Below are positions 26,866-44,602 of a stretch of 64,000 bases of DNA, one piece after another (positions within the stretch are counted from its first letter, which is position 1; every line of letters starts with the position of its first letter). This stretch comes from Acetomicrobium hydrogeniformans (lineage in GTDB: Bacteria; Synergistota; Synergistia; Synergistales; JAFGMB01). Below the pieces are notes generated by a model. The model did no database searches, was not told where the DNA came from, and worked only from the letters and a program-made list of their open reading frames with translations. Made by a program: the position numbers and the translations under genes. The stretch lies in contig JAENYO010000003.1 in NCBI GenBank assembly GCA_016841745.1, positions 124,001 through 188,000 on the forward strand, read 5' to 3'.

Positions 26866-26903
26866 TTTCAATAATAGAGTCTATTGGAAGAGGGGAATTC
26901 TAC

Positions 26904-28511
26904 ATGAAAGAAATTGAAAGTATACCAAATGCTTCCAGAACTTTACAGGCACTGAAAAATCTTGGTTATGATATTAATTCCTCTATAGCGGATGTAGTTG
27001 ATAATTCAATATCCGCTAAAGTAGATTCAAATAATATTGATGTTAGTCTGATTATTGACCCCAGTGATAATATTGTATGTCGAATTCAGGATGATGGATG
27101 CGGCATGGACGAGAACACACTAAAGGAAGCAATGCGTTTCGGTACTGATACGACATATGAAAATAATAGCTTGGGTAAGTTTGGAATGGGTATGAAGACA
27201 GCATCCTTAAGTCATTGCGATGTTCTTACTGTAATTTCGAAAACAATGACTTCAGATATTTCTGGATTCAGATGGGATATCAGAAAGATTAATCACTCAC
27301 CCAACAAATGGACCCTTCTTCACCTTACTAAAAGAGAAATTCAAGACATTCTTGATAAAGAAAATCTCCAGCTTTCTTCACAAGGCACTATTGTGATGTG
27401 GGATGAACTTTTTTCAATCAATGAAGATTATCATTCATATCAGATTAGTAAATTTGCCAATAATTATTACTTCAGAATTTGTTCTCAACTCAAGGTGTAC
27501 CTTGGAATGATATATCACAGGTTTCTTGAAGGTAGTGTCGATAACCATCCCTCTTTTAATTTAACTGTTAATGGCGAACCAGTAACCCCCTGGGATCCCT
27601 TTTGGAGAAGTGAGGAAAACACAGAAGAAATACATTTCAATAAGGGGTTTTCTGAGCTGTTTTTCACTGGATGTTCTAAACCTGTCAGAATTTCTGGATA
27701 TGTCCTTCCGAATAAAGAAGGTTTTTCCACTGAAGAAGCCTGGAAAAATGCGAAAGGGCTTTTGTCATGGAATGATTCTCAAGGGTATTATATTTACAGA
27801 GCAAACCGGATGATTCGTTTTGGGGGGTGGCATGGAACCAAGGCTAAGGATGAACATGACAAACTTGCACGTCTCAGTATTGATATTGATCCAAGTCTGG
27901 ATGAATTGTTCCGAATTACAGTCAATAAATCAAAAGTCCAATTTCCTGAAAAATTATTCCTGCATTTAAAACAGAAAATTAATCCAAAGATTATTGGAAA
28001 AGCGAAATCCAAATATAACAAATCCAAAGAAAAACTTCATGTAAAAAATAAAATCAGAAGTAGTGAAAAGGGAAAGATAATCCCGAAAGAATTACTATCT
28101 GACAATAATATTCATACTAATAGAGGAAAAAGGGAGAATATAGGTTTTGTGGAAGTTAACAATCCAAATGGTACGTGGCTGGCTAACAGAATTAATGATT
28201 TTCTCAAATACGGTACCAGTAAAGATTTTGAGATTATCTCAGAAAATCTGAAAGAAGAAAAACTGTGGAAGATTGTCTGTCATAGTAGTGGTAAGTTCAA
28301 GGTAATTGTAAATGCTTCTCACCCATTTTACTTAAAATACTATAATTCATCAACAAATAAGGCCGTCACTGAAGCATTGGATGCGCTAATCTTTTCCTTA
28401 GCTTTTGCAGAGCTTTATAATCGAAATGATCAGAATAGCCAATTGTTCAAAACCTATAAAACGGTTTGTTCAAAGTCACTTGAAAGACTTTTGATGGAAG
28501 GGATTATTTAA
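26904..28511 (+). CDS. GHKL (MORC/MutL-like) ATPase of a restriction-modification-linked system
   Basis: About 535 residues. The N-terminal GHKL fold has the N-box SSIADVVDNSISA (D33, N34), the G1 box DDGCGMD (residues 63-69) and the G2 box GKFGMGMKTAS (91-101). A transducer domain and a lysine-rich linker (about 370-410, near KSKYNKSKEKLHVKN) follow, then a C-terminal domain. GHKL ATPases of this kind are known to cluster with Z1 helicases, cytosine methylases and Vsr, and are proposed to sense or remodel unmodified DNA. The ATG at 26904 is preceded by ggaagagggg; a TTG at 26862 lies within the inverted repeat and is unlikely. The Z1 gene follows after one base. Confidence 0.92.
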   Translation: MKEIESIPNASRTLQALKNLGYDINSSIADVVDNSISAKVDSNNIDVSLIIDPSDNIVCRIQDDGCGMDENTLKEAMRFGTDTTYENNSLGKFGMGMKTASLSHCDVLTVISKTMTSDISGFRWDIRKINHSPNKWTLLHLTKREIQDILDKENLQLSSQGTIVMWDELFSINEDYHSYQISKFANNYYFRICSQLKVYLGMIYHRFLEGSVDNHPSFNLTVNGEPVTPWDPFWRSEENTEEIHFNKGFSELFFTGCSKPVRISGYVLPNKEGFSTEEAWKNAKGLLSWNDSQGYYIYRANRMIRFGGWHGTKAKDEHDKLARLSIDIDPSLDELFRITVNKSKVQFPEKLFLHLKQKINPKIIGKAKSKYNKSKEKLHVKNKIRSSEKGKIIPKELLSDNNIHTNRGKRENIGFVEVNNPNGTWLANRINDFLKYGTSKDFEIISENLKEEKLWKIVCHSSGKFKVIVNASHPFYLKYYNSSTNKAVTEALDALIFSLAFAELYNRNDQNSQLFKTYKTVCSKSLERLLMEGII

Positions 28512-28512
28512 T

Positions 28513-31164
28513 ATGAAAATTGAATCACATTATCTTGATCATTTTGTATATATCCTTGTTCAGAGATTTTACTATCAGGGTGAACAATTATTTAATATTG
28601 ATGATGAATTGAAAGGTCTTACACATCCAGTTACAAATGCACAACTTGACCCGGAATCACGAGATGCAATTGAAAAAGGTTTTTTAGACAAGATCCGATA
28701 TAGAAAATCACGTGAAGGTTCTGTTATTGTTCCAGTATCAATGGTTTCGGATCCCAGAGGCCATGAAGAATGGTATGAAGAATGGCTTTCTTCTAATGAT
28801 AATGATGAGGGGATGTATTATTGGAAGCGATTAGAGGATTTTCTCTCGCAAGAATTCACTCCCAAGTATGGTCCGGAAAGAGCTGGTAAGATTATTAAGT
28901 CCATAGATGAAGCAACTCACTCGATTATGGGGAAAATGGCTAATCCATTGAGAACTGAATTTAATTACAAAGGCCTGGTACTTGGTCATGTTCAAAGTGG
29001 GAAGACAGCTAATTTCACGGCTCTTATTGCTAAAGCGGCAGATTCAGGTTACAAATTGATCATCGTACTGGCTGGAATCCATAATATCCTGCGAAGACAG
29101 ACTCAAATTCGATTAGATAGAGAATTGACAGGAATTACAGATGTTACAGATCCTAGATCGTATATTTCCATACCAGGGCCAGCTAAACGTTGGAATAGAT
29201 TCACCAGTGCTGGACATGATTTCTCAATTGGGACAAACGGTCTCTTTGAAAATTACTGCAGTATCGACAACCCTTCCTTATTTGTTGTGAAAAAAAATGT
29301 AAGTGTCTTAGATAAGCTGATAGAGTATTTTAATCATGCATCAACAGAATTGAGAGCACAACTTCCCGTTCTAGTGATAGATGATGAAGCTGACCAGGCA
29401 TCTGTTGATACAAATGCTAATGACCCTGATTCTGATCCGACAAGAACGAATCGTTGCATTAGAAGTATCCTCAAGCTCTTTCCTTGTAAAACATATGTTG
29501 GATATACTGCTACACCTTTTGCCAATGTTCTTATTGATATGCAATCTGAACATGATGCTTTCGAGGATGATTTGTATCCAAGGAACTTTATTGTATCTTT
29601 ACCTCAACCAGAAGGCTATTTTGGTACTGCAGAACTATTTAAGAGTGATTTATCGGAAAAATTTGTTGAAGCGATTTCTCCTGAAGAAGGAGATATCTTG
29701 GTCAGTAATGGGAAGATGTCTGTTCATTTATCAGAAGCAATTGATGAATTTATTCTAGGTTGTGCTGTAAGAAATCTCCGTCAAGATAGAATGAAACCAA
29801 TGAGCATGCTTGTGCATGTTTCTCGTAGAATCGATGACATGAAAATCATCAAAAAGCTGATAGATGAATATGTTTCAGAAATTGCTGGTCGCTATTACAA
29901 CCAAGCCCTTTCAGCACCTTTGAAAGATGAATTTAGATATATCTGGGATCGTTTTCATGAGGACGGATTAGCAATTAGAGAACAATTAGATCTAGAACAT
30001 TTCACCCCTGATTATCATCAGGTCTGGGATGAAGTTGGAAATATTTTCGATATTTTACGAGTTATGGAGCTGAGCAGTGATTCAGGCGATAGTTTGGACT
30101 ATGAAACAGGAGAAGAGATTAAGGTTATTGCAGTAGGTGGAGACAAGCTCTCAAGAGGTTTAACCTTAGAAGGACTCATGACAAGTTATTATCTCAGAGA
30201 GAGCCGACAATATGATACGTTGCTTCAAATGGGAAGATGGTTCGGTTACCGTAAGGGATACGAAGATTTAACGCGGATTCATACTACCGAAGGAATCTGG
30301 AGTTTTTTCGAACATTTAGCTCTAGTCGAAGATGAATTAAGAAGTGAAATATATAGATATGAAGAAGAAAATATGACACCACTTCAGATGGCAGTTGCAA
30401 TTAGAGATCATAGATATCTGAACGTTACTGCTCCAAATAAAATGGGAGCTGCACGAGCCAGGCAAATTTCTTATAGTGATTCTTTAAACCAGACAATATG
30501 GTTTCCCTTGGATAAGCCAGAAATCCTCAGGGCTAATTATCATCTAGGTGACAGTTTCATAAGAGATATCAATACTGAGAATGGATTTGAGAATATCAAT
30601 GGTAGAGGTGTATATCTCGCAAAGCAAAAAGTTCCAGGCGAATGGTTATTGGAGAGTTTTTTAAACCGGTATACTTTTGCTAACAGGGAGGAAACGGCAG
30701 GCCCTGGTTTAGATGCAAACAGATTACTTAAGTATATTTTCAGGAGATTGAATGATACAAATCCCGAATTAACAAAATGGAGTGTTGCTGTGGTAGGAAA
30801 TCAAAAATCGACAAAAGACAATCCATCCGTCAAGTATGGTGATCTTTCATTGAACATGATTCAGCGTAGCAGGAAACACACTGAACATGGCTATAATATT
30901 GGCGTGTTAACTGAACCTGCTCATCTGAAAATTAATGGTGTCTCCAGGGAATTAAGATCGCCGCAAAACCCACTGCTATTACTGTATTTGGTTTGGAAGG
31001 GCAGTAAAGCTGTAAAATTTGTAGAAACAGATAGATTACGTCCTAATGTAAGGATTGACCTGTATCGATTTATAGATACTCAAAAAGTGGATCTATTGGG
31101 AATAGCTGTCGTGTTACCAAAGAGTGATTATGAACCTGAAAATTATATTGGGCAGTTGTTATGA
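28513..31164 (+). CDS. Z1-domain helicase-like protein
   Basis: 883 residues. A helicase-like ATPase core has Walker A GHVQSGKT (158-165), LIIVLAGIHNILRRQTQIRL, the Walker B-like VLVIDDEADQ (D290-D294) and YVGYTATPFANVL. The Z1 region carries VGGDKLSRGLTLEGLMTSYY and RQYDTLLQMGRWFGYRKGYE, which resemble helicase motifs V and VI. It is the translocase expected to act with the GHKL ATPase and the nuclease encoded on both sides. It follows the GHKL gene after one base and overlaps the next gene by 4 bp (ATGA), so all three form one operon. Confidence 0.94.
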   Translation: MKIESHYLDHFVYILVQRFYYQGEQLFNIDDELKGLTHPVTNAQLDPESRDAIEKGFLDKIRYRKSREGSVIVPVSMVSDPRGHEEWYEEWLSSNDNDEGMYYWKRLEDFLSQEFTPKYGPERAGKIIKSIDEATHSIMGKMANPLRTEFNYKGLVLGHVQSGKTANFTALIAKAADSGYKLIIVLAGIHNILRRQTQIRLDRELTGITDVTDPRSYISIPGPAKRWNRFTSAGHDFSIGTNGLFENYCSIDNPSLFVVKKNVSVLDKLIEYFNHASTELRAQLPVLVIDDEADQASVDTNANDPDSDPTRTNRCIRSILKLFPCKTYVGYTATPFANVLIDMQSEHDAFEDDLYPRNFIVSLPQPEGYFGTAELFKSDLSEKFVEAISPEEGDILVSNGKMSVHLSEAIDEFILGCAVRNLRQDRMKPMSMLVHVSRRIDDMKIIKKLIDEYVSEIAGRYYNQALSAPLKDEFRYIWDRFHEDGLAIREQLDLEHFTPDYHQVWDEVGNIFDILRVMELSSDSGDSLDYETGEEIKVIAVGGDKLSRGLTLEGLMTSYYLRESRQYDTLLQMGRWFGYRKGYEDLTRIHTTEGIWSFFEHLALVEDELRSEIYRYEEENMTPLQMAVAIRDHRYLNVTAPNKMGAARARQISYSDSLNQTIWFPLDKPEILRANYHLGDSFIRDINTENGFENINGRGVYLAKQKVPGEWLLESFLNRYTFANREETAGPGLDANRLLKYIFRRLNDTNPELTKWSVAVVGNQKSTKDNPSVKYGDLSLNMIQRSRKHTEHGYNIGVLTEPAHLKINGVSRELRSPQNPLLLLYLVWKGSKAVKFVETDRLRPNVRIDLYRFIDTQKVDLLGIAVVLPKSDYEPENYIGQLL

Positions 31165-32174
31165 ATTACTCAGAATTGTGTATTGACACGTGGAATCAGC
31201 TTGACACATCAGGTGACCTTATATTTGGGTATAGAACATGTTGTTTAGGCTTGAATGATGATGATAAGACTGATTTACATATTTTTGTAGATGAGCAGAA
31301 TAGATACCACCTGGCAATTATAGTATCAGATGCCATAACAAAAGATATTAAAGATCCACATGTAAATGGGTTGCGAATAGGATTATGTCAGTACAGATTT
31401 GATGATGACAGGGTAAATCAGGTTATTGATTTGACATGCCATATAGGAGGTTACCTTGAAGAGTTTACCGAGATTGTCAGGCAGATAGCCAGGGCGATTC
31501 TGGAAAATGGAGACCTACCTGACATTGCAGTCAATGAGGTAATCAACAGCTGGATCTCCTTCTGGTCCAACCAGCGGAAGGAAGCTTTATCGGAAGAAGA
31601 CCAGATTGGGCTTTTCTGTGAACTGCTAGTTCTTCAAAAGATGTGTGGTATAAACCCCAGTAATGCTATAAATGCCTGGAGAGGTCCACTAGGTGAAAAA
31701 CATGATTTCAATTTTACCGATTGGACTGTTGAGGTAAAGGGCACACGCAGGAAAAAACGCATTCACACAATAAATGGAATTGACCAGTTAAAACGTTTAT
31801 ATAACAAAAATTTAGCATTTGTCTCATTCATGCTGTGTGTTTCTGATGGCGAGAAATCTAGCAATTTGCCTTCTCTGATTGAATCTATAATTCAAGACTA
31901 TTTTCGTGAGAAACCAAATCTAGTTGTCCGGTTTAATGATTTACTCTCCGCCTATGGATATAGCCCAATGCATGAAAGGGAATACAGTAAATTCAATATT
32001 GAAATAATAGAATCATTTTTTTATGAAATTGATGATACCTTTCCTAAGATCATTTCTGACATGTTCAATGAAACTCTTAACCCGAGAGTTTTATCTGTAC
32101 GTTATGATATTTCTCTTGAGGGTATCCAGGGGACAGACTTTCATCAGATTCGTTGGGGAGATTATTGTTATTGA
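31161..32174 (+). CDS. PD-(D/E)XK motif protein (DUF4420), probable nuclease
   Basis: 337 residues. The nuclease signature is HDFNFTDWTVEVKGTRRKK (D182, E191-V-K193), preceded by the helix DQIGLFCELLVLQKM, which holds the conserved glutamate of this fold. This family regularly follows Z1 genes and is thought to cut DNA for the system. It begins in the last codon of the Z1 gene (ATGA overlap). In many such operons an AIPR-family protein comes next; here there is instead a 305-bp gap and a DISARM-like set. Confidence 0.9.
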   Translation: MNYSELCIDTWNQLDTSGDLIFGYRTCCLGLNDDDKTDLHIFVDEQNRYHLAIIVSDAITKDIKDPHVNGLRIGLCQYRFDDDRVNQVIDLTCHIGGYLEEFTEIVRQIARAILENGDLPDIAVNEVINSWISFWSNQRKEALSEEDQIGLFCELLVLQKMCGINPSNAINAWRGPLGEKHDFNFTDWTVEVKGTRRKKRIHTINGIDQLKRLYNKNLAFVSFMLCVSDGEKSSNLPSLIESIIQDYFREKPNLVVRFNDLLSAYGYSPMHEREYSKFNIEIIESFFYEIDDTFPKIISDMFNETLNPRVLSVRYDISLEGIQGTDFHQIRWGDYCY

Positions 32175-32479: not shown

Positions 32480-35050
32480 ATGACTATTGCCTCAGGCAAT
32501 CCGTTTTTTGATTTTCAAAAAGCTTTAAACAATCTCCCAGGGAGCCAAAGTTTATCTTTTAAACATCTTTGGGAGCAAATGAACATTGCTTATCTGGTTG
32601 GTTCCCGTATGGTTCTACCAACTGAATTAGATAAAATTAATTCAGCCCTTGTCAATGCTACAATTTTAGAAAGAACTTCTTTATTATTAGTGTTACCAGA
32701 CTCAGATCCATCTCATTTAAGTTTCATATTGGCTCCTGCTATACTTCAAACTGCTCATTTTACATTGAAAAATCAAGTGATAAATAAACATATTCTTTGT
32801 TTTAGTTCGAATATTCAACTGCGTAAAGATCTTTTAAACGTCAGGGTTAAGAGATTAGAAGATTCAAATATCGTTCAACAGGTCATATTAGGAGAAAGAG
32901 CTCGAATCCAATTTAGAGACCCTAAAGAGCTTCCTACATTCATTTTTACTTCATTATCCCCTGAAAAAATGGTCAGATCACCTGAGAATCTTCAGCCTTT
33001 GTGGACTTTCATCGATTGCGATAGAGTTGAAAGAAATATTTGTTCTTCAAATATTATAAAAATACTCGAAGAGAAAAAAATTCCAGTAATAGCGGTTACA
33101 TCAAATCCATTCTCACCCATAATCGATACATTTAGATCTAATAATATGAATGTGTTCCAGTGGCCATCAAGTGGTATTAGAAATCTTAGAACACCTAAAA
33201 CAACTGAAAATCTCTTAACAATGTGTATTGAAGGCCTTGAAAATCCAGAGAAGACATTAGTACACTCTTTAGCAGTAGTCAAAGAAAATTCCAGTATATC
33301 TACGCTCTTTAGAAATGTGTACCGTAAATTGATGCGGGCAAAAGAAAATGCAAAGGGGGGCTTGCAATCAAAAGCGATCGCCTTGAGTTTCCGATATTTC
33401 AACGCTCTAAAAACTCTAACTGTCCCAATTAATCTATTTGATTGTGAATGCAAGAATTTCTGGGGAGTTCAAACCCTGGAAACAAGAAAAGGTTCATTAC
33501 AATATGTTCTGAGATATTTGGAAAAAACAGATTCTGCTTTAATTGACACCTTGTCAGATGTATATGGTGATTTGGCTAAAATTCATACAATATTTGAGAA
33601 TCAATTACCTCCCAGAGGCCTATCAATTATCAAAGCTTTGGAAAGGATACAAGGAAATGAAAAGTGTGTTTTCTGTTTCAATACAATGGCAAACAAGATA
33701 ATCTTTTCATATTATCTATTGGCGAAACATAACATTACCATGAGCAAACTGGCAACGAAAAACATCTTTCTTCTATCAGTCAAAGAATTTGCAGCGTTTT
33801 TCAATGCCCAGAAGAGGAGAAGTCAATGTAGTTTTTTGAAGTTACCTGAGGATATTTTAAATTCACTAAATAGGGACTTTTCTGTTGAGAGAACCGAAGT
33901 AGTTTTTATGTCTTTGCCCAATAGTTATTTGTTAAAGTACCTATGTGTTTTCGCTTGTTTTAAGGATTTACACTTCCTGATTTACCCCTATGAATACCAT
34001 TCATTAATGATTCTACTTAAGTATGCCCAAAAAAATATGATATTAGATATTAATGACAATTTTACTTCGCTCTCTAATTTGAGTAAGATCCCAATCTGTT
34101 CTGTAAATGTTAAGCGATCTAAAATCTTTGAGCTGGTTAATTTTACCGAAGAATTAGCTTGTGATTTCAAAACAAGTATTCCAGTACTTGATACTAATCA
34201 AACAACAACAGACGAGTTTTCTCTACAAAAGGAGTTAGCCTTTTTGTTGAGCGATGAAGAAGATACAGAGATAACTACGTCTTCTTTACACAGAATTAGT
34301 GATTCTGTAAGTCTGGAACTTGAGGATGATCAGGTGAGAAATGATTTTGTACAAAAGGCAGTGGAACTCCAATTTGAAGAATCATATATTGGAAGGTTTA
34401 GCGAAGATACTCTCTTGTACGTTATCAAATCATTTAGAGGTAAATTGAAGTTGCAAAAAGCGTTTGTGAAATCTCTTAGAAAAGGAGAAAGAATAGTATT
34501 TCTCCCGCAACAGAAACGACAAAATCTATATGATCTATTGATTGAAAAATTACATAACCAAGGGCCTATTCAGATTCATCTCTCATTCATTTCACATTGG
34601 CAAACTGAATTACTAGAAGCATATATGGTGTGGAAGCATAACGGAGGGAATCTGAAGGATTTATTGTCAAAGATGCAAGGAAGTGGAAGTAAAATACAAT
34701 CTCTTCAGGCGATTAGGTCCTGGATTAATGGATATATCCTTCACCCGCGAGATCCCAATGACCTTCTAAGACTTTCCCAGATACTGAATATGTCATTTAC
34801 ACAACAAAATTATAAGCGGATTCACAAAGCAGCGACAAGACTGGCTAATTTACACCGGATGATATCCCACAGATTAAGCAAATCTATAGAAACTGGTATG
34901 GATAAAAACTCTGGGGATTTAATTGACAATGAAACTGGACTGACTAATCAGGATCTGATGGAATCAGTATTGGTCCTGACTCTACAATCGATGCGAGTTG
35001 TATCCGGGATATATTTTGAATCTGATCTGGGCATATTTGAAAAGGGATAA
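32480..35050 (+). CDS. Large protein in the position of DrmE, possibly a degenerate helicase
   Basis: 856 residues, AT-rich, with a strong ggaggaat before the ATG. No intact Walker motif is visible. The first 230 residues nevertheless have the layout of a decayed helicase domain: RTSLLLVLPDSDPSHLSFIL where motif I would be, PLWTFIDCDRVER where motif II would be, and PVIAVTSNP where motif III (SAT) would be. The C-terminal 250 residues are helical and basic. In class 2 DISARM systems a large first gene, drmE, precedes drmA and drmB; length, position and neighbours fit, so a DrmE-like role is likely but not proven. It may recognise or hold DNA without hydrolysing ATP. Confidence 0.5.
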   Translation: MTIASGNPFFDFQKALNNLPGSQSLSFKHLWEQMNIAYLVGSRMVLPTELDKINSALVNATILERTSLLLVLPDSDPSHLSFILAPAILQTAHFTLKNQVINKHILCFSSNIQLRKDLLNVRVKRLEDSNIVQQVILGERARIQFRDPKELPTFIFTSLSPEKMVRSPENLQPLWTFIDCDRVERNICSSNIIKILEEKKIPVIAVTSNPFSPIIDTFRSNNMNVFQWPSSGIRNLRTPKTTENLLTMCIEGLENPEKTLVHSLAVVKENSSISTLFRNVYRKLMRAKENAKGGLQSKAIALSFRYFNALKTLTVPINLFDCECKNFWGVQTLETRKGSLQYVLRYLEKTDSALIDTLSDVYGDLAKIHTIFENQLPPRGLSIIKALERIQGNEKCVFCFNTMANKIIFSYYLLAKHNITMSKLATKNIFLLSVKEFAAFFNAQKRRSQCSFLKLPEDILNSLNRDFSVERTEVVFMSLPNSYLLKYLCVFACFKDLHFLIYPYEYHSLMILLKYAQKNMILDINDNFTSLSNLSKIPICSVNVKRSKIFELVNFTEELACDFKTSIPVLDTNQTTTDEFSLQKELAFLLSDEEDTEITTSSLHRISDSVSLELEDDQVRNDFVQKAVELQFEESYIGRFSEDTLLYVIKSFRGKLKLQKAFVKSLRKGERIVFLPQQKRQNLYDLLIEKLHNQGPIQIHLSFISHWQTELLEAYMVWKHNGGNLKDLLSKMQGSGSKIQSLQAIRSWINGYILHPRDPNDLLRLSQILNMSFTQQNYKRIHKAATRLANLHRMISHRLSKSIETGMDKNSGDLIDNETGLTNQDLMESVLVLTLQSMRVVSGIYFESDLGIFEKG

Positions 35051-35493
35051 AAATTTGATCCGGATTTTGTGATTATTGCAAGATGTCTAGCTAATATTTC
35101 TTGTGTATTTTCTCTTCTTCGGTAAATTATGTTAATTATGAGAGAGATTTTTATAATTGTATCACTCTTGTTCCAGCCTCAAGATAAACTGAATTTCAAG
35201 CAGAAAAAGATAGTATATTCACGAAGGATTGAATTTCTCCATCAAGGATCAAGTAGAAATGGAGCAAGGAATAAGCAGGTTAATTTCGTCATTTTCTCAA
35301 GACCTTTTTTATTCTTCGGGAATGTCTTGGATGTAACGTTCCGTAATATTTCGAGAGGTTCTGAATCTGTATTAGTTAGCTTTCTGTTAAACTTCAAACA
35401 TAAACAGCAATTCTCAGTTCAGACATCAGATTCTTTTTAACTGTATTTCTCTGATTGTTCTGACTTGTCTTGAGGATAAATAGGGAGGAAATA
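35051..35493. other. Gap inside the DISARM-like set
   Basis: 443 bp without a supported gene. An open frame of 103 codons (35129-35440) has no ribosome site and a non-protein-like composition. A reverse-strand frame over 35270-35380 is open but has no start. No hairpin or repeat stands out. The last 20 bases carry gggaggaa, the site for the next gene. Confidence 0.4.
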
Positions 35494-37341
35494 ATGCCTG
35501 AGTGGACTCAAGAGCAACAAGATGTAATTTATATACACCCCGAGTCGAGGGTTGTTGTAAATGCTGGACCTGGAACCGGTAAAACTGCGGTTGCTTGTGC
35601 CAGAGTTGCAGCTCTTGTTGATAAGTATGATATTGAGCCTTCAAACATCATGCTAATTAGTTTTACAAGGGTTGCTGTTGCGGAAATTCGTGACAGGATT
35701 GCAAAGTATCTGAAGGATAATCAATCTGTTTTTTCGGTAACAATTGCTACTCTTGATTCATTTGCATGGACTTTACATTCAGGTTTTAGAGATAATCTTC
35801 CAAAGCTGGATTATAACGAGAATATTTCCAGTGTTATTAAGCTTGTCCAGACTGATGAAGGTGTGCAGGATTATCTCAAGACTATTGAACATCTTGTTGT
35901 AGATGAGGCACAAGATATTGTTGGCCAGAGGGCGGAATTGATACTGCAGATTTTGGGGCAACTCTCAGAAGATTGTGGTGTAACTGTTTTCTCTGATGAA
36001 GCCCAGGCAATTTATGGTTTTGCTGACGATGAAGAGAGTAATGCTAATGAGAATCAAAGGAGCATGCTTGTTGAGTATATTGCTCAGGCAGATAGTTTGG
36101 ATTTTCAGGCTCTCACGTTGAAGGAAATTCACCGAGTTCATTCAGAAAATTTAAAGTATATTTTCAGTGAAACCAGAGTGAAAGTAATGGAAACGGTTCA
36201 ACACCCTTTACCTGATAGCTGGGAGATCATCAAACAGGAAATTAAAGATCATGCAGATAGGTCAATAGAAGTACCAATCCATAGGCTCCATGAACTTCCT
36301 GAAAATTCGTTTGTTCTCTATCGTCGGAGAGTTGAAGTTCTCCTTGCTTCCTCCTTTATGAGTCTTCGCCAGCATCGAATAAGAATGTCCGGGTTACCTA
36401 CCTGTATTGCCCCATGGGTTGGAGCTTGTCTTTCAGGTCATACAGAGCCTAAGCTTCAGGAAAAGACCTTTCTTCAACTTTGGGTTGAAAATGTTTCAGA
36501 AGAATTATCAGGTTCTCTGGAGCCTGAAAAAGCATGGGATATGCTTTTCCGTACTGCAGGTGAGAATGCAAATCAGGTTGACATGAGCTGTCTGAGGAGG
36601 CGTCTTGGGAGAAAAAAGCCACCTTCCGAGTTTTGTCTTCCAACTGTTGGATTCAATGGCCCGCTTTTCGGGACAATACATGCCTCAAAGGGCAGAGAGG
36701 CTGATCATGTATTCTTGATGTTTCCTCAAAACGGAGGAAATAATAATGGTGATGCAGGGGAAGAAATAAGAGTGTTGTTTGTTGGTGCTACCAGAGCTCG
36801 TGAAACTCTTGTTGTTGGTGATGGTTACAGACACTGGTCCAGTACACTTTTAACAAAGAAACGTAACTATCATATTCATGATGACCATTATGTACAGGTT
36901 GAGTTCGGCAGGGAAAATGATATCGACGCATTGAGTATTGCTTCAAGGGAAATTATTGATCAGACTGCTCAGAAAATCCAGAAGAACCTGAGAGATATTG
37001 GAACTAATCCTATAGAAGTTAATGTATATCAGCTTCCTAACCATGCCTTTAAAATCTTTTCTTCTGAAAAGTGCATGGGTTATTTGAGTCTGGGAGTTAA
37101 CTCAGACCTTTTTAAGATTGGAGATGCAATCCAGACAGATTACGGTGGCTACAAACGTAAACCCCCGAGAGAAATCAATCACCTTAGAATAATGGGGATT
37201 AGAACAATTGTCCTGCCTCCTGATTCGCCGATTTGCGAAAAACTCTGGGAACCCTGGTCTTCAAGCGGTTTAATTCTTGCACCTGTTATTGTGGGTTATC
37301 CAAAATGTTATTTCCCGTTCCAGGCCCGAAGAAGATATTAA
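35494..37341 (+). CDS. SF1 (UvrD/Rep-like) DNA helicase of the DISARM-like set
   Basis: About 615 residues, near the lower end for UvrD-type helicases. Motifs: WTQEQQDVIYIHPESRVVV (Q motif), GPGTGKT (25-31, Walker A), SFTRVAVAEIRDRI (Ia), VVDEAQD (137-141, II), VTVFSDEAQAIYGF (III), LFGTIHASKGREADHVFL (V) and LFVGATRARETLVVG (VI). It should unwind or translocate on DNA using ATP. The ATG at 35494 lies behind gggaggaa. The drmA gene starts about 19 bp further on. An SF1 helicase here is not part of the standard DISARM gene list. Confidence 0.9.
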   Translation: MPEWTQEQQDVIYIHPESRVVVNAGPGTGKTAVACARVAALVDKYDIEPSNIMLISFTRVAVAEIRDRIAKYLKDNQSVFSVTIATLDSFAWTLHSGFRDNLPKLDYNENISSVIKLVQTDEGVQDYLKTIEHLVVDEAQDIVGQRAELILQILGQLSEDCGVTVFSDEAQAIYGFADDEESNANENQRSMLVEYIAQADSLDFQALTLKEIHRVHSENLKYIFSETRVKVMETVQHPLPDSWEIIKQEIKDHADRSIEVPIHRLHELPENSFVLYRRRVEVLLASSFMSLRQHRIRMSGLPTCIAPWVGACLSGHTEPKLQEKTFLQLWVENVSEELSGSLEPEKAWDMLFRTAGENANQVDMSCLRRRLGRKKPPSEFCLPTVGFNGPLFGTIHASKGREADHVFLMFPQNGGNNNGDAGEEIRVLFVGATRARETLVVGDGYRHWSSTLLTKKRNYHIHDDHYVQVEFGRENDIDALSIASREIIDQTAQKIQKNLRDIGTNPIEVNVYQLPNHAFKIFSSEKCMGYLSLGVNSDLFKIGDAIQTDYGGYKRKPPREINHLRIMGIRTIVLPPDSPICEKLWEPWSSSGLILAPVIVGYPKCYFPFQARRRY

Positions 37342-37360
37342 ATGAATGGAGGATGTCTCA

Positions 37361-40300
37361 GTGAAAAATTCAGCTAGAGAAAGCATTCTTTCAAGGCTAG
37401 TAGAAGATCTTGTCGGCCCACATGATGAAGAAGAAATATTGGAAGGAAGACCATCTGATACATATATCACAGGAATTCTATGGCCAATGCAGACCCAGAT
37501 GTTACCAGATGAAGATGAAAAAATTTCTTCCAACTCGTCACTTAATGGGGATGAGCCTCTTTCTGGTGAAGAAGAAGAGGTATCATTCAGGGCTCTGATA
37601 AAGCCCAGTGTAGCTGGATTGTCATTTGCTATTTCCTCAGTTGAACTGACTCTGTCCCTGTCCCTGTCAGTATCTTTTGGAATATATAGGCCATTTCATG
37701 AATCTATCCCAGAAGGGGCAGATAGAAAATGTAGTATGAAAAAGAACTTTAACACCTCATTATGGAAGCGTAGTGTTTACAATATTTCTGACATTATATG
37801 TGAAATTTGTCCAGGGACAAGAAACATTGATCTGGATACTTTCGGGGTACCTTCTGGAGTCTGTCTTAATATAAGGACTGTCCCGTGGGAGGAGGGGAAA
37901 TTGCTTGTTACTGTAACCCTGCTTAACAAGCAGAATGAAGGAAATTTTATGAACAGGGAATCCACAGAGAAATTAACTCTTTTCCAGACTCGGGTTGAAA
38001 TTAAACCACGAGGTTCAACCAGGTTGATAGCTCGACCTTCCCGGCGACCTATAGTTGATGAAAATGACATGTCTTCTGCTTTACTTTATCGCCACGTACT
38101 TGAATATGCGGTAGGGCATACCTGTTCTGCTTCATGGACCGAATCTGATGAGCCAGGAATAGCAAGTTCTGTATTTACAGAATGGGTTCCAAGGGCGAAT
38201 GTCAGAAGTATTGATCCCAATGGCCATGACTACTTCAGGGATCTTAACACTTTAGGAGATATCGATCCATTATCCGCCGATTGGCTCTCTAGAGCTGATG
38301 ATAACCAATTGACCAAAGCTCTTGAAATGGTACCCTCCATCTACGGTAAATGGATTGAGGAACAGAAGGGTAAGATAGAAGAAGTTCCAGAAGAATTCAA
38401 AAATCAGGCTTACAATAACCTCTCAGGATGCAAAGAAGCTCAGGAAAGAATGCTTAATGGAGTAGAATCCATTGCAATTGACTCATCCAAAGCTAAGGCC
38501 TTTAGATTTGCCAATGCTGCCATATCACTTCAGAATAGCTGGGATGAAAAAAAGAGCACAAGAGGATCTTTTCGCTGGCGCCCTTTCCAGATTGGCTTTC
38601 TACTTATCGCTGCAAATTCAGCGATAGATCCATCTGATGCATACAGAGACACAATGGATCTGCTATGGTTTCCTACAGGAGGAGGTAAAACAGAGGCATA
38701 TCTTGGATTAATAGCTTATCTTCTTTTTTATAGACGTTTTTCTTCAAGACCTGATGATCAAGCTAAACCAAGAGTCAATGCAATTATGAGATACACATTG
38801 AGAACATTAACAACACAGCAATTTGACAGAGCTGCGTGTCTGATATTTGCTTGCGAAGTTATTCGCCGGAATGAAATCTCAGAAACTGCTCCATTAGGTT
38901 TAGGAACAGAACCTTTTTCAATTGGACTCTGGGTTGGTTGTGAAGCAACACCAAACAGATTTGAGGATGTTCCCGTAAATCCTATGACAGCAACAGAAAA
39001 AACGCCTGCCCAATTGGTTTATTGTCCTGCATGTCATCATAAAATCTATTGGGAAAGGGTGGTTGAAAAAGGGAGTGTTGAGGCGAGGTGCAGGAACAGT
39101 AAATGTCCACTCTTCCATGATTCTCAACCCTTGCCAATATGGACTGTCGATGAAGATATTTATAGGTGTAAACCTTCACTCGTTATAGGAACAGTAGATA
39201 AATTTGCTCAGATAACAAGAAATCCCAAAATAAAAGATTTTTTTGGTATAGGTGATTGTCCTCCTGACCTGATAATACAGGATGAACTTCACCTAATTTC
39301 TGGACCTCTGGGGACAATTGCTGGTCTTTATGAGGTCGCGATCGATAGACTCTTTTCTTGCGCTTTTCACAAACCTAAAATAATAGGTTCGACAGCTACA
39401 ATCCGGAGAGCAGGTGATCAGGTAAGAGCTCTTTTTGATCGAAGGACATGTCAATTTCCTCCACCTGCGTTAGATGCAGATGATTCCGGGTTTGCCGTGA
39501 CAGACTTAAATGCTCCTGGTAGATTGTATGCTTCAGTTACTACTGCTGGGAGATCTGCTAAATTTACTTTACAGGCAGTTGCTTCATCACTACTTCAGTC
39601 CGCCAAGTTTGGTATCTCTGATACAGAAACAAGAGACCCTTACTCGACCTTGGTTTCATATTTTAACTCAAGGCGTGAGCTCGGAGGTGCACTTGTAATG
39701 ATGCAGGATGACGTGAGGAAAAGCATGGAAATCTTCGGAAAAATAAGAAGAGAAGAAACCCGTTCAGTTAATCTCGTTGAAGAAATGACCTCAAGAAGAA
39801 ATCAGACAGAAATCCGGGATTTACTCCAAAGCCTTGGCGTCACTTGTGATCATGATGGATGTGTTGATGTCCTTCTGGCTACGAATATGCTTAGTGTTGG
39901 GGTTGATATTCCTAGACTTGGACTAATGCTTGTTAATGGGCAACCAAAGGGTATTTCAGAGTATATTCAGGCTACCAGCCGCGTCGGCAGGGGAAATGTT
40001 CCTGGACTTATAATTTCAGTCTTGAATAATGTAAAGGCGAGGGACAGATCCCACTATGAATCTTTTGTAACATGGCATTCATCATTATACCGTGATGTCG
40101 AAGTCAGTAGTGTTACACCATTCGCCTCCAGAGCAAGGGACAAAGCTCTTCATGCAGCACTTGTTGCCCTTGTAAGATGTCTTGTTCCCGGAATGCTCGA
40201 AAAACCTGATCCAAAACTATTGCAAGGACAAATTTTGGAGGATATCGTGACTTATATAGTAGGAAGAGCTTCTTCAGTGGATCCAAAAGAGACTGCTATT

Positions 40301-40510
40301 GAATCAGAACTCAGAAATCTTATTGTAAGATGGAAACAGATGAACCCCAGGCATTATTGGAATCCCAGGAATCGGCAGGATTCACTGTTGCAGGATGCAG
40401 AGAAGGCTGCTGAAGAACTGGCAGCAGGTAATCTTGTTTCAGCCGCATGGCCAACTCCAAACACTATGAGAAGTGTGGAGCCATCAACGAAGTTTTTTCT
40501 AAGGGGGTAA
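37361..40510 (+). CDS. drmA: DrmA-like SF2 helicase of DISARM
   Basis: About 1049 residues. An N-terminal domain (1-420) precedes an SF2 helicase core: FPTGGGKTEAYLGL (Walker A, about 438-444), IIQDELHLISGPLGT (DELH near 641) and IIGSTATIRRA (motif III). The second RecA domain has LATNMLSVGVDIPRLGLMLV and YIQATSRVGRG. A zinc-binding insert with CPACHH and CRNSKCPLF lies between motifs I and II. This matches DrmA, which with DrmB forms the core DISARM complex that blocks incoming phage DNA. The GTG at 37361 is preferred, being 8 bases behind ggagg; an ATG at 37346 overlaps that site. drmB begins 5 bp after the stop. Confidence 0.9.
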   Translation: MKNSARESILSRLVEDLVGPHDEEEILEGRPSDTYITGILWPMQTQMLPDEDEKISSNSSLNGDEPLSGEEEEVSFRALIKPSVAGLSFAISSVELTLSLSLSVSFGIYRPFHESIPEGADRKCSMKKNFNTSLWKRSVYNISDIICEICPGTRNIDLDTFGVPSGVCLNIRTVPWEEGKLLVTVTLLNKQNEGNFMNRESTEKLTLFQTRVEIKPRGSTRLIARPSRRPIVDENDMSSALLYRHVLEYAVGHTCSASWTESDEPGIASSVFTEWVPRANVRSIDPNGHDYFRDLNTLGDIDPLSADWLSRADDNQLTKALEMVPSIYGKWIEEQKGKIEEVPEEFKNQAYNNLSGCKEAQERMLNGVESIAIDSSKAKAFRFANAAISLQNSWDEKKSTRGSFRWRPFQIGFLLIAANSAIDPSDAYRDTMDLLWFPTGGGKTEAYLGLIAYLLFYRRFSSRPDDQAKPRVNAIMRYTLRTLTTQQFDRAACLIFACEVIRRNEISETAPLGLGTEPFSIGLWVGCEATPNRFEDVPVNPMTATEKTPAQLVYCPACHHKIYWERVVEKGSVEARCRNSKCPLFHDSQPLPIWTVDEDIYRCKPSLVIGTVDKFAQITRNPKIKDFFGIGDCPPDLIIQDELHLISGPLGTIAGLYEVAIDRLFSCAFHKPKIIGSTATIRRAGDQVRALFDRRTCQFPPPALDADDSGFAVTDLNAPGRLYASVTTAGRSAKFTLQAVASSLLQSAKFGISDTETRDPYSTLVSYFNSRRELGGALVMMQDDVRKSMEIFGKIRREETRSVNLVEEMTSRRNQTEIRDLLQSLGVTCDHDGCVDVLLATNMLSVGVDIPRLGLMLVNGQPKGISEYIQATSRVGRGNVPGLIISVLNNVKARDRSHYESFVTWHSSLYRDVEVSSVTPFASRARDKALHAALVALVRCLVPGMLEKPDPKLLQGQILEDIVTYIVGRASSVDPKETAIESELRNLIVRWKQMNPRHYWNPRNRQDSLLQDAEKAAEELAAGNLVSAAWPTPNTMRSVEPSTKFFLRG

Positions 40511-40515
40511 ATGAT

Positions 40516-42348
40516 TTGCCAAATAATCAGTTGGGGGAATTACGTCGCAGTTCGATTATTTCGCTATTTGGGCCTGGCTCAATAGTCGATTTCAGGGCCG
40601 ACGGGGCTCCTGTATCTGCAATAATTTCCGGTCTTGAAGCATGGGATAATACTGCCCCCCCGAGAGGAACTCGGAATCCACAAAGTATCCATGAACCTCG
40701 TCTAGAGAAAAAACTCATTGTTAGTGGTTTCAGGCTCCCACCAGTGCAGATTTCTGTTTCTAGAAACAATCCAATTCAAGGTAGGCTTGTGGCGTATCGT
40801 TTCCCGGATTGGCTCCAATGTCCAATGTGCGGGGTAATTGCCCCGTCGAAAAAATGGAAAAGTGATCCTGGAAAGACATATCGTTATTGTGCAACCTGCA
40901 CAAGCAGGATGCCAGGTAGAAAAAAAGTTTTCGCAGTTCCAGTCCGATTCATTTTTGCATGTGAAAAAGGGCATCTTGATGAATTTCCCTGGCATTACTG
41001 GGTTGAGCATAAAACGGGATGTGCCAATACCAGTGGAAAGTTGTTGCTTAAATCTGAGAAGCCAGGCCTTTCCGGTCTTTTCCTAAGCTGTCCAATATGT
41101 AGCTCCAAAAGGTCTATGGATGGAATTTTTTCTGCATCAACCTGGGAAAGATTCCATTGTAAAGGTCGCAGGCCGTGGCTAGATTGTGAGAATGAAGAAT
41201 GTACCCGGAAACCCAGAGTTTTACAAAGAGGGGCATCGAACGTCTATTTTCCTTTTATTGAATCAGCACTGAGCATTCCTCCCTGGTCCGATCGACTTCA
41301 ACACTATCTTGGGGTTTACTGGTCCCCACTTATTAATACTGCAGAGGAGGACAGGTCCAGTTTTATCCGAATGCTGGCAAGGGGCCCTTTGCAAGCCATT
41401 TTGACAGAGCTAAGAATGACTCCAGATGAGTTGGCAAGGGAAATCCAGTTGAGGGTTGAAGCAATCTCCTGTTCAGAAGATACACAGAACAGTATCAGGA
41501 AGGAAGAGTACTTTCAGCTAGACTCAGGAATTAATACTGAGCCTGACAATTCGGAAGAATTTGAAATACGCAATGAAACTATTCCAGAATCTCTTGCACC
41601 CTTTCTTTCAAGAATTGTAAGAGTCGTCAGACTTAGAGAGGTCCGTGTATTAAAAGGATTCACAAGAATTAATCCCCCCGAGGGACAGTCAACTAATTTC
41701 GCCAAACTTTCACAAAACAGACTTGACTGGCTTCCTGCTGTTGATGTCAGAGGAGAAGGAATATTCCTGGCCATAAATAAGACACAACTTATAAGCTGGA
41801 AACAGAATGAATCTGTAAAAAAACGAATACTACGTATACAGGAAGAGTATGACGCTGAATGCCACAATAACAGCGAGAACAGAAGTCACGAGTTGAGTAT
41901 TACCCCTGAGTTTATACTTGTTCATACTGTTGCGCATGTTCTCATGAGACAACTTACAATGGAATGTGGCTATTCAAGTGCTGCCCTTCGGGAAAGGCTT
42001 TATGTGGATGAAGAAGGTATGGCCGGGTTACTGATTTACACTGCAACACCAGATACTGATGGTACTCTCGGAGGACTCCAGCGCCAGGGAAAGTCTGAAA
42101 GGATTGAAAGAGTGATTCGGGGGAGCATCGAGGCTGTTCAATGGTGTTCATCAGATCCATTGTGTATCGAGGGTATCATGGCTGGACCTGGTTCATGCTC
42201 AAATGCTGCATGCCATGCCTGTGTTCTAGTGCCGGAAACTTCATGTGAATATTTCAACCGTTTCCTGGATCGAGCACTCCTCGTGGGCTTGCCAGATGAT
42301 CTTGCCGTTGGCTTTTTCTCAACTCTGAGAGGGATTGGAGTTGAATAG
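40516..42348 (+). CDS. drmB: DrmB-like DUF1998 protein of DISARM
   Basis: About 610 residues. The N-terminus has LRRSSIISLFGPGSIVDF, the typical FGPG motif. Several zinc-type cysteine groups follow (CPMCGVI, YCATC, CEKGHLDEFPWHYW, CPICSS). The C-terminal DUF1998 domain reads HTVAHVLMRQLTMECGYSS and ALRERLY, then CSNAACHACVLVPETSCEYF with NRFLDRALL. DrmB partners the DrmA helicase. The TTG at 40516 is chosen because aaggggg lies 7 bases upstream and it avoids a 64-bp overlap with drmA; an ATG at 40447 exists inside drmA. The NERD-helicase gene follows after 2 bp. Confidence 0.9.
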   Translation: MPNNQLGELRRSSIISLFGPGSIVDFRADGAPVSAIISGLEAWDNTAPPRGTRNPQSIHEPRLEKKLIVSGFRLPPVQISVSRNNPIQGRLVAYRFPDWLQCPMCGVIAPSKKWKSDPGKTYRYCATCTSRMPGRKKVFAVPVRFIFACEKGHLDEFPWHYWVEHKTGCANTSGKLLLKSEKPGLSGLFLSCPICSSKRSMDGIFSASTWERFHCKGRRPWLDCENEECTRKPRVLQRGASNVYFPFIESALSIPPWSDRLQHYLGVYWSPLINTAEEDRSSFIRMLARGPLQAILTELRMTPDELAREIQLRVEAISCSEDTQNSIRKEEYFQLDSGINTEPDNSEEFEIRNETIPESLAPFLSRIVRVVRLREVRVLKGFTRINPPEGQSTNFAKLSQNRLDWLPAVDVRGEGIFLAINKTQLISWKQNESVKKRILRIQEEYDAECHNNSENRSHELSITPEFILVHTVAHVLMRQLTMECGYSSAALRERLYVDEEGMAGLLIYTATPDTDGTLGGLQRQGKSERIERVIRGSIEAVQWCSSDPLCIEGIMAGPGSCSNAACHACVLVPETSCEYFNRFLDRALLVGLPDDLAVGFFSTLRGIGVE

Positions 42349-42350
42349 TA

Positions 42351-44033
42351 ATGGCAAAAATGTGGCCGCGCAAACTCCCAATTGATATTCTTGAAAACCC
42401 CTTAAGGAATTCTGAGATAAAAGTTTTTAATAAACTTCAGAATCAGCTTGGTGACAGATTTGTAGTTTTCTATTCACGACCATGGCTAGGTTTAAAGCCC
42501 AATGGTGAGGAAATAGATGGAGAGTGTGATTTTGTTATAGCTGATCCCGAATCAGGTGTACTAGTAATTGAAGTTAAAGGAGGAGGTATTAGACATGATC
42601 CCATATCTGGTACCTGGACAAGTACGGATCGGATGGGTTTCAGGCACAGAATCAAAAACCCTGTGGAACAGGCAAGATCATCAAAACATATTCTTCTTGA
42701 AAAACTGAAGAGATCTCATGGTGGATTTCAACGATATATTCATATTCGACATTGTGTCATTTTCCCAGATTCTTCAAAACCAGGACAGGACCTTGCTCCA
42801 GATATGCCTCTTGAAATGTTTTGTTTTATCGAAGACTTTGAAGATAACTTTATACACTGGATCAAGTCGAGATTAACGTTCCCAGAAATCAATCAGGGGC
42901 AAACCCGGCCTCTTGGAAATGATGGGATAAGAGCCCTCGAAAATCTTCTTGCCCGACCTTTTCATCTCAGGACTCCTTTGGGGCATATCCTCAAAGAAAG
43001 TGAGAAAGAGATTCAGATTCTCACGCAACAGCAATATCATATTTTGAATGCAATAAGGGAAATTCAACGGGCTGCTATTGCAGGTAGTGCAGGTACAGGA
43101 AAAACTGTTCTTGCCATGGAAGAGGCAGTCAGGTTTTCTGAAAGTGGAGCCAGGACATTATTTACCTGTTTCAACCGGGCTTTGGCAGATTTTGTAAGAA
43201 AATCTATTCAAAATAGTTCATTACTTCATGTATCAGGTTTTCATGGCTGGTGTTTCTCAATAATCAAAGAGGCTGGTTTTGAAAGACCAACTGGAAGGAT
43301 TCCTGGGAATTTTTTTGAGGAAACTCTGCCTGAACTAACTCTTCAGGCACTGGAATTACTTCCTGAACAACGGTTTGATGCAATTGTGATTGATGAAGGG
43401 CAGGATTTTTTACCATTCTGGTGGCCAGTTCTGGATGCGGCTTTGTCAGAAAATGGTCCCAAGTTGTTACGCGTTTTTTATGATGATAACCAGAAAGTGT
43501 ATGGGAAAAGGTTATCTCTTCCAACTGAAATTATTGCTGTTCCAATAAGGCTTGGTTTTAATTTGCGAAATACAAAAAGAATTCATGAAGTCTCAAGGCA
43601 GTATTACCGGGGACCAGAAGTTACAGCAATTGGCCCTTGGGGACTTCCTGTTGATTGGATTAAAGTAAATGTTGAAAACCAGATATGGGTTAAGTCACTT
43701 AATTGTGCAAGGCACATGATTGGTACAGATGGAGTTTTGCCAGAAGACTTGGCAATTCTAGTGATAAATGAAGACGAAATCAGAATATTAGAGGATCAAA
43801 AGAATATATCAGGGTGTCATCTTAAAACATGCAGATGCGATAATCCTCTTGTTGGTCATGTTGTTATTGATACGTTGCGTCGGTTCAAGGGACTAGAGAG
43901 ATCTGTTGTGATTATGCCAGCAAGTAAAGCTTTGATGCGGGAACCTGAATTGGTTTATGTAGGATTGACTAGAGCCCGCACCCATCTTTCTATTGTTGGT
44001 GAAGAATCGGTAGTAGAACAAATCAAGATTTAG
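42351..44033 (+). CDS. NERD nuclease-SF1 helicase fusion of the DISARM-like set
   Basis: 560 residues. The NERD nuclease-like domain (about 15-135) shows the PD-(D/E)XK core GECDFVIADPESGVLVIEVKG (D60, E74, K76). An SF1 helicase follows: Walker A GSAGTGKT (245-252), TCFNRALADFV, AIVIDEGQDFLPFWW (348-352), FYDDNQKVYGKR and a C-terminal VYVGLTRARTHLSIVG. It couples DNA translocation to cleavage. It starts 2 bp behind drmB, exactly where DISARM operons usually carry the phospholipase-D nuclease DrmC, so it may supply the nuclease activity instead. That substitution is an inference. A terminator lies 270 bp downstream. Confidence 0.88.
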   Translation: MAKMWPRKLPIDILENPLRNSEIKVFNKLQNQLGDRFVVFYSRPWLGLKPNGEEIDGECDFVIADPESGVLVIEVKGGGIRHDPISGTWTSTDRMGFRHRIKNPVEQARSSKHILLEKLKRSHGGFQRYIHIRHCVIFPDSSKPGQDLAPDMPLEMFCFIEDFEDNFIHWIKSRLTFPEINQGQTRPLGNDGIRALENLLARPFHLRTPLGHILKESEKEIQILTQQQYHILNAIREIQRAAIAGSAGTGKTVLAMEEAVRFSESGARTLFTCFNRALADFVRKSIQNSSLLHVSGFHGWCFSIIKEAGFERPTGRIPGNFFEETLPELTLQALELLPEQRFDAIVIDEGQDFLPFWWPVLDAALSENGPKLLRVFYDDNQKVYGKRLSLPTEIIAVPIRLGFNLRNTKRIHEVSRQYYRGPEVTAIGPWGLPVDWIKVNVENQIWVKSLNCARHMIGTDGVLPEDLAILVINEDEIRILEDQKNISGCHLKTCRCDNPLVGHVVIDTLRRFKGLERSVVIMPASKALMREPELVYVGLTRARTHLSIVGEESVVEQIKI

Positions 44034-44300: not shown

Positions 44301-44335
44301 ATCAGAGCTGCTTCATGTCAATGGAGCAGCTCTGA
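44301..44335 (+). terminator. Terminator after the DISARM-like set
   Basis: atcagagctgct and agcagctctgat form a perfect 12-bp stem with an 11-base loop, followed by tgttta. It is the only strong hairpin in the 44034-44602 gap, which otherwise holds no gene that I can support. Confidence 0.65.
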
Positions 44336-44602
44336 TTGTTTAGTGGGGCAGGTTTACATCAAAACTTATCCTTCCAGGGAGCATTGCTACAAAAACAACA
44401 CTGTTTTCCATTCCAGATCTAAATGCTAAAATATATACAAATAGTATTTATATGGAGAGGCAGCCTTTATTTGTTAGATCAGACTTGTTTGAGTTAGAGG
44501 TCCTGTTAGCAGCTTTCTATGGAGAATCAATGAGTTTATGAGCATAGATAGGAAATACGGGGGGTGTTCTCACTGGGAAACCGTACGAAAGGTCAAAGGC
44601 AG

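What the first reader, a model, noticed from the sequence alone, without database searches (positions are those of the whole stretch)
32480..44033. DISARM-like operon without drmC but with two extra SF1 helicases, one fused to a NERD nuclease
Seen: an 856-residue protein, an SF1 helicase, DrmA and DrmB homologues and a NERD-SF1 helicase in one direction, the last four closely packed. Known: class 2 DISARM is drmE-drmA-drmB-drmC-drmMII, with DrmC a phospholipase-D nuclease. No PLD motif (HxKxxxxD) is visible in any of these genes. Inference: the NERD domain (D60, E74, K76) replaces DrmC as nuclease, and the UvrD-like helicase adds a translocation step, making a distinct DISARM subtype.
Basis: partly seen in the sequence, partly recalled or inferred. 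Interest (0 to 1): 0.85.

Follow-up and report, generated by a model that had tools for sequence, protein, structure and literature searches.

The report
DISARM relative with swapped nuclease
This bacterial gene island carries a relative of the known anti-virus system DISARM in which the usual nuclease gene is replaced, in the same operon position, by a nuclease-helicase fusion, and the same four-gene block recurs in many unrelated bacteria; this suggests, but does not yet show, which nuclease this branch of DISARM uses to destroy phage DNA.

Summary
The tight unit is a four-gene operon, UvrD-DrmA-DrmB-NERD/SF1-helicase (35494-44033). DrmE (32480-35050) lies 420-440 bp upstream and is probably a separate unit. 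I found the same four-gene order in 47 loci across several phyla. DrmA and DrmB of this type form a strongly supported branch apart from class 1 and class 2 DISARM. Within that branch the fourth position holds either the NERD-helicase (PD-(D/E)XK residues conserved in about 93%) or a true PLD-type DrmC (3 genome loci, one viral contig). A single origin of the DrmC loci is rejected (p-AU 1.8e-59), so the nuclease slot has been switched. The window genome has no DrmC, and its only cytosine-5 methyltransferase is a DrmMII-type gene in this island. In 20 of 28 related genomes such a methyltransferase lies within 10 kb (expected about 0.01 per locus). Between that gene and the operon sits an MZA-like MORC-Z1-DUF4420 module. 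The five-gene order with DrmE was seen only here, so 'class 2 DISARM lacking drmC' is wrong: it is a distinct DISARM-like branch plus an added DrmE. I found no published description. Function is inferred, not tested.

The parts
24623..25036 (-). Vsr-type mismatch endonuclease
   Evidence: NCBIfam vsr 142 bits, cut-off 98. Vsr lies near Dcm in 31 of 60 UvrD loci.
25042..26646 (-). DrmMII-type cytosine-5 DNA methyltransferase; the only C5-MTase in the genome
   Evidence: Best PADLOC hit DrmMII 323 bits; Pfam DNA_methylase 1.8e-44; sole PF00145 gene in G000. Close relatives sit beside the cassette in L013, L018, L025, L035, L047, L051, L054, L069 and others.
26862..28511 (+). MORC/MutL-like GHKL ATPase (MzaB-like)
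   Evidence: Pfam HATPase_c_3 2.8e-27; NF041932 203 bits, below the MzaB cut-off of 850.
28513..31164 (+). Z1-domain helicase-like protein (MzaC-like)
   Evidence: Pfam Z1 9e-70; NF041933 440 bits, cut-off 1500.
31161..32174 (+). DUF4420 predicted PD-(D/E)XK nuclease (MzaD-like)
   Evidence: Pfam DUF4420 8.7e-61; NF041934 80 bits, cut-off 420.
32480..35050 (+). DrmE-family protein, function unknown; probably a separate transcription unit
   Evidence: Pfam DrmE_C 2.3e-42; NF038316 108 bits, cut-off 80. Only about 15% identical to DrmE of DrmE-DrmA-DrmB loci. About 420-440 bp gap before UvrD.
35494..37341 (+). UvrD-like SF1 helicase, first gene of the four-gene operon
   Evidence: Pfam UvrD-helicase 4e-29. 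Walker A G33-T39, DEAQD 145-149, R222, H404-K407-G408 and R442 conserved in 63 homologues. Ribosome site and ATG at 35494.
37346..40510 (+). DrmA SF2 helicase; acidic trigger-loop-like linker kept, N-terminal EVE-like domain missing
   Evidence: NF038325 885 bits; 7s9v 1.6e-135, aligned from Serratia residue 205. Acidic linker with 10 of 39 residues D/E. Motifs and K619 (Serratia K803) invariant.
40447..42348 (+). DrmB, DUF1998/MZB canopy protein; likely start TTG 40516
   Evidence: NF038324 522 bits. Start argued from a ribosome site 5 bp after the DrmA stop and from homologues.
42351..44033 (+). NERD (PD-(D/E)XK) nuclease fused to an SF1 helicase, in the position DrmC has in other DISARM operons
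   Evidence: Pfam NERD and UvrD_C_2. E22, D60, E74, K76, Q107 and Walker A/B conserved. AlphaFold pLDDT 89.6 with D60, E74/K76 and Q107 on the expected strands and helix.
44301..44336 (+). Terminator-like 16-pair hairpin downstream of the operon
   Evidence: Pattern scan; tail is poor and the overall number of such sites is no more than chance, so suggestive only.

Best explanation
A DISARM-like restriction system of a separate branch. The DrmMII-type methyltransferase marks host DNA (inferred). DrmA with DrmB forms the DNA-end sensor and translocase, held off by an acidic trigger-loop-like segment and loaded by 5'-overhang single-stranded ends of unmodified phage or plasmid DNA (shown for Serratia DrmAB in PMC9142583; inferred here from homology and conserved residues). 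Once DrmAB has engaged, the UvrD-like helicase unwinds or feeds the DNA and the NERD-helicase cuts the exposed strand, taking the place of DrmC much as a PD-(D/E)XK nuclease works with SF1 motors in RecBCD/AddAB-type machines (inferred). The adjoining MORC-Z1-DUF4420 module probably acts as a second restriction arm that uses the same methyl mark and makes breaks that feed the DrmAB machine (speculative).
For: Fixed gene order UvrD-DrmA-DrmB-NERD in 47 loci of several phyla and on plasmids, with near-zero spacing in the window. DrmC or NERD in the fourth slot of the same cassette, never both beside DrmAB in 101 loci. AU test rejects one origin for the DrmC loci; the UvrD branch has SH-aLRT support 100. 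Nuclease and ATPase residues conserved. C5-MTase within 10 kb in 20 of 28 cassette loci against about 0.01 expected each, and the window's genome has just one. No DrmC in the genome. K803 of Serratia DrmA, needed for full defence, is invariant, and the acidic linker is kept.
Against: No experiment. DrmC is reported dispensable in known DISARM (PMC9142583), so its slot need not carry an essential nuclease and 'replacement' may be loose. Some UvrD loci have neither nuclease after DrmB (L061, L066, L067). Enrichment of methyltransferases near the cassette partly reflects clustering in defence islands in general. The locus survey used a query built from cassette members, so counts are not frequencies. 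DrmE and the MZA-like module are not part of the cassette elsewhere, so their involvement is uncertain.
Confidence: 0.62

Rival explanations
1. It is an ordinary class 2 DISARM in which drmC was lost, with unrelated SF1 helicase genes lying next to it by defence-island clustering.
For: DrmE, DrmA, DrmB and a DrmMII-type methyltransferase are all present. DrmC is often missing and dispensable in known DISARM (PMC9142583).
Against: DrmA and DrmB do not group with DrmE-type systems. UvrD and NERD-helicase flank DrmAB in fixed order in 47 loci, which clustering by chance does not give. DrmE is absent from 30 other cassette genomes.
Confidence: 0.1
2. The four-gene cassette is a general DNA-end processing add-on: its main role is to degrade fragments made by whichever restriction enzyme sits next to it (EcoRII-type, McrBC-like, Type III, MORC-Z1-DUF4420), not a self-contained methylation-sensing DISARM.
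For: The neighbouring restriction module changes while the cassette stays fixed: EcoRII-C, McrBC-like, Type III Mod/Res, SNF2 plus an unknown protein, MORC-Z1-DUF4420.
Against: A particular DrmMII-type methyltransferase recurs beside the cassette in 13 other UvrD loci, several without an evident restriction enzyme, and in the closest relative L013 the visible unit is just Dcm-Vsr-UvrD-DrmA-DrmB-NERD (contig is cut upstream).
Confidence: 0.22
3. NERD-helicase and UvrD act as an anti-replication or RNA-targeting module (the NERD-helicase motor resembles Schlafen helicases) and do not degrade incoming DNA.
For: Best fold match of the NERD-helicase model is human SLFN11, 8e-21, and Pfam SLFN group 3 helicase matches weakly. 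NERD-helicases also occur with reverse-transcriptase systems (PADLOC name).
Against: The match is to the helicase part (TM 0.47 with rmsd 18 over the whole chain); UvrD and Dna2, DNA enzymes, follow closely. NERD residues follow the DNA-cutting PD-(D/E)XK pattern.
Confidence: 0.06

Closest known systems
DISARM class 1 (drmD, drmMI, drmA, drmB, drmC)
   Same: DrmA and DrmB homologous along their length; cassette variants L041-L043 even keep DrmC after DrmB.
   Different: No DrmD or DrmMI found beside it; UvrD before DrmA; NERD-helicase in place of DrmC; N-terminal EVE-like domain of DrmA missing.
DISARM class 2 (drmE, drmA, drmB, drmC, drmMII)
   Same: DrmE-family protein, DrmA, DrmB and DrmMII-type methyltransferase present.
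   Different: DrmA/DrmB belong to another branch; no DrmC; DrmE only about 15% identical to DrmE of DrmE-DrmA-DrmB loci and separately spaced; two SF1 helicases added.
MZA-like / MutL-Z1-DUF4420 restriction systems
   Same: MORC ATPase, Z1 protein and DUF4420 protein in order next to Dcm and Vsr.
   Different: All three below NCBIfam MZA cut-offs; MzaA and MzaE not seen among the scanned neighbours; coupled to the DISARM-like operon.
TALON (PMC12458937)
   Same: A YprA-family helicase together with a NERD-type nuclease.
   Different: TALON has an ARMADA-like single-chain YprA helicase plus TPR-CSD and TBP genes; here the helicase is split into DISARM-type DrmA and DrmB and NERD is fused to an SF1 helicase.
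ARMADA (PMC12458937)
   Same: A YprA-family helicase working with a UvrD/GajB-like helicase (type II).
   Different: No BrxHII-like helicase or PglX methyltransferase found here; DrmA/DrmB are separate genes.

Membership tests
DISARM (core) | DrmA helicase present | tested here: met
   Serratia DrmA 7s9v E=1.6e-135; NF038325 885 bits, slightly under its 950 cut-off.
DISARM (core) | Separate DrmB with DUF1998/MZB domain | tested here: met
   NF038324 522 bits, cut-off 240; Pfam MZB 7.4e-10.
DISARM class 2 (PADLOC definition: DrmA, DrmB, DrmC, DrmE, DrmMII) | DrmC PLD nuclease | tested here: not met
   No DrmC hit in the genome; only two PLD-containing genes, unrelated.
DISARM class 2 (PADLOC definition: DrmA, DrmB, DrmC, DrmE, DrmMII) | DrmE | tested here: met
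   DrmE_fam subfamily cut-off passed (108 against 80) but the DISARM_DrmE equivalog not (63 against 250).
DISARM class 2 (PADLOC definition: DrmA, DrmB, DrmC, DrmE, DrmMII) | DrmMII cytosine-5 methyltransferase | tested here: met
   Best PADLOC hit DrmMII 323 bits; divergent, about 9 kb from UvrD.
DISARM class 2 (PADLOC definition: DrmA, DrmB, DrmC, DrmE, DrmMII) | DrmA/DrmB group with other DrmE-bearing systems | tested here: not met
   UvrD branch apart from DrmE branch.
DISARM class 1 | DrmD and DrmMI present | tested here: not met
   None among the proteins of 23.7-45.6 kb scanned.
MZA | MzaA-MzaE present above cut-offs | tested here: not met
   MzaB, C, D relatives only, all far below cut-offs.
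TALON | ARMADA-like single-chain YprA helicase with TPR-CSD and TBP genes | tested here: not met
   Helicase is split into DrmA/DrmB; no such neighbours among scanned proteins.
Phage defence system | Protects cells against phage | not testable with these tools

The most novel reading that the evidence does not exclude
A widespread, so far unnamed third branch of DISARM in which a NERD nuclease-SF1 helicase fusion and a UvrD helicase form the effector of DrmAB, the nuclease module being interchangeable with DrmC, and which works as a shared end-processing engine coupled to diverse restriction-modification modules through a common cytosine-5 methyltransferase.
Probability: 0.4. Interest if true: 0.78.

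Novelty: new variant of a known kind. Interest (0 to 1): 0.62.

Why it matters
How DISARM destroys DNA is open: DrmAB recognises DNA ends, but DrmC is dispensable and often missing, and recruitment of other nucleases has only been proposed (PMC9142583). Here a whole branch of DISARM carries, in the DrmC position, a different nuclease fused to a motor, with conserved catalytic residues, and there are natural swaps between the two inside one branch. That gives concrete, single-residue tests of the nuclease step and suggests that detection rules which require DrmC miss or mislabel this branch.

Tried and rejected
Class 2 DISARM without drmC: rejected by the DrmA and DrmB trees and the absence of DrmE in relatives. 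Hidden drmC elsewhere in the genome: rejected. TALON or ARMADA: rejected on architecture. The unknown ~1000-aa protein that stands upstream of UvrD in about 20 loci as a diverged DrmE: no profile similarity. DrmE structure: AlphaFold model too poor to use (pLDDT 48), no PDB sequence relative; the hhalign of window DrmE against the DrmE profile is circular (the profile contained the window) and is not used. DrmE relatives in viral contigs: none. Promoter and terminator scans: no more hits than chance.
Full report
Observation. The five genes exist as described. The tight unit is four genes: UvrD-like helicase (ATG 35494 with a ribosome site), DrmA 4 bp later, DrmB (ORF from 40447; likely start TTG 40516), and NERD-helicase 2 bp after DrmB. 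DrmE is separated from this unit by 420-440 bp and from DUF4420 by about 300 bp. The region 24-46 kb has 34-44% G+C against about 46% to its left, and DrmE_fam is found in no other of 188 genomes searched in the phylum, both consistent with an acquired island.

What was missed. Directly left lie Vsr, a DrmMII-type cytosine-5 methyltransferase and MORC, Z1 and DUF4420 proteins that resemble MzaB, MzaC and MzaD. The methyltransferase is the only PF00145 gene in the 3.04-Mb, 99.6% complete genome. No DrmC is present in that genome; the two PLD-containing genes are a cardiolipin-synthase-like and a polyphosphate-kinase-like protein by their sequence.

The cassette recurs. DrmB relatives on plasmids first showed UvrD-DrmA-DrmB-NERD in Rhizobium, Shinella and Azospirillum. 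A scan of genome contigs with six such DrmB proteins gave 80 loci; mapping gave 47 loci with UvrD before DrmA and NERD-helicase after DrmB in Pseudomonadota, Bacteroidota, Bdellovibrionota, Cyanobacteriota and others, including another genome of the window's order (L109). The query was built from members, so these numbers show recurrence, not frequency. NERD-helicases also occur as DrmE-DrmA-DrmB-NERD (L087, L090) and as (DrmE-)NERD-DrmA-DrmB (L103-L105, L134).

Nuclease swap. In L041, L042 and L043 (and viral contig L149) the cassette UvrD-DrmA-DrmB is followed instead by a PLD protein of one cluster; the L042 member matches DrmC (PADLOC 8.2e-30; Pfam PLDc_2 5.3e-16). Over 101 scorable loci, none had both a NERD-helicase next to DrmAB and DrmC after DrmB (66, 11 and 24 for NERD only, DrmC only, neither; Fisher p 2.6e-6, not corrected for relatedness). 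On a DrmA tree of 39 rows the UvrD-type loci form one branch (SH-aLRT 100) holding both NERD- and DrmC-bearing members, apart from class 1-like and DrmE-type loci; holding all DrmC loci together is rejected (p-AU 1.8e-59). The DrmB tree of 103 rows agrees. One same-order locus, L109, and L076 are placed outside the branch on long end branches, so the UvrD association may have more than one origin. The window pairs with a Bacteroidota MAG, L013 (DrmB 58%, DrmA 53% identity), whose visible unit is Dcm-Vsr-UvrD-DrmA-DrmB-NERD.

Active sites. In 60 NERD-helicases E22, D60, E74, K76 and Q107 are kept at 93-95%, Walker A and B at 95-100%; in 63 UvrD proteins the SF1 motifs are nearly invariant. The AlphaFold model of the NERD-helicase (pLDDT 89.6) places D60, E74/K76 and Q107 on the strands and helix expected for PD-(D/E)XK enzymes; the helicase half resembles Schlafen 11, UvrD and Dna2. 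DrmA keeps an acidic linker like the trigger loop and K619, equivalent to Serratia K803, but aligns only from Serratia residue about 205 and so lacks most of the N-terminal EVE-like region.

Coupling to methylation. In 28 cassette genomes (123 Mb) there are 59 C5-methyltransferase ORFs, about 0.01 per 22 kb, yet 20 of 28 cassettes have one within 10 kb. This is far above chance, although defence genes cluster anyway. Relatives of the window's own long DrmMII-type enzyme sit beside 13 other UvrD cassettes, often ending a few bases from the NERD-helicase. Other neighbours vary: EcoRII-C restriction enzymes, McrBC-like pairs, Type III Mod/Res, an SNF2 helicase with a protein of unknown kind, WYL regulators.

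Mechanism. Shown elsewhere: Serratia DrmAB is autoinhibited by its trigger loop, loads on 5'-overhang DNA, is stimulated less by methylated DNA, and does not need DrmC (PMC9142583). Inferred here: DrmAB of this branch senses and opens unmodified ends, UvrD extends unwinding and NERD-helicase degrades. Speculative: the MORC-Z1-DUF4420 module shares the methyl mark and makes the breaks.

Comparison and novelty. Core DISARM criteria are met; class 2 membership fails on DrmC and on phylogeny, class 1 on DrmD/DrmMI, MZA on cut-offs, TALON/ARMADA on architecture. Searches of the open-access library found no paper describing DISARM with a NERD-helicase; the YprA survey PMC12458937 describes NERD only in TALON in the parts read, but its supplementary tables and subscription papers could not be read. 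Verdict: new variant of a known kind; the exact DrmE-containing five-gene order has been seen only in this window.

Noticed in passing
L054:1335-4370 and L010:3358-6324 (cluster of 21 loci): A protein of about 1000 aa with no Pfam or PADLOC match lies divergent from UvrD, paired with an SNF2/BrxH-like helicase, in about 20 cassette loci; it is not a diverged DrmE.
   Followed up: partly
L022:194-1105, L008, L020, L025, L069: WYL-domain regulators stand just before UvrD in several cassettes, suggesting switched expression.
   Followed up: no
L017:40-4764 and L034, L076, L016, L025, L035: A protein of about 1570 aa with a TmtA-like N-terminus and a C-terminal SF2 helicase stands near the cassette in six loci.
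   Followed up: no
L086:11909-13750: In an Oscillospiraceae DrmE-DrmA-DrmB locus the place after DrmB holds a GmrSD-type (DUF262) protein, possibly a further nuclease swap.
   Followed up: no
window 23755-24480: HNH endonuclease gene just outside the Vsr gene at the left edge of the island.
   Followed up: no
window 44564-45640: RhuM-family protein (PADLOC candidate PDC-S05, 526 bits) directly downstream of the operon.
   Followed up: no
L072:14892-18087: A second cassette locus with a MORC-like ATPase, Vsr and Dcm nearby (Roseivivax), again linking the MutL/MORC restriction type with this cassette.
   Followed up: partly
L149-L153 (IMG/VR contigs): DrmAB of this type occurs on five contigs classed as viral; one (L149) has DrmC in place of NERD-helicase and a DrmA identical in the compared columns to that of an Elusimicrobiota MAG.
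   Followed up: partly
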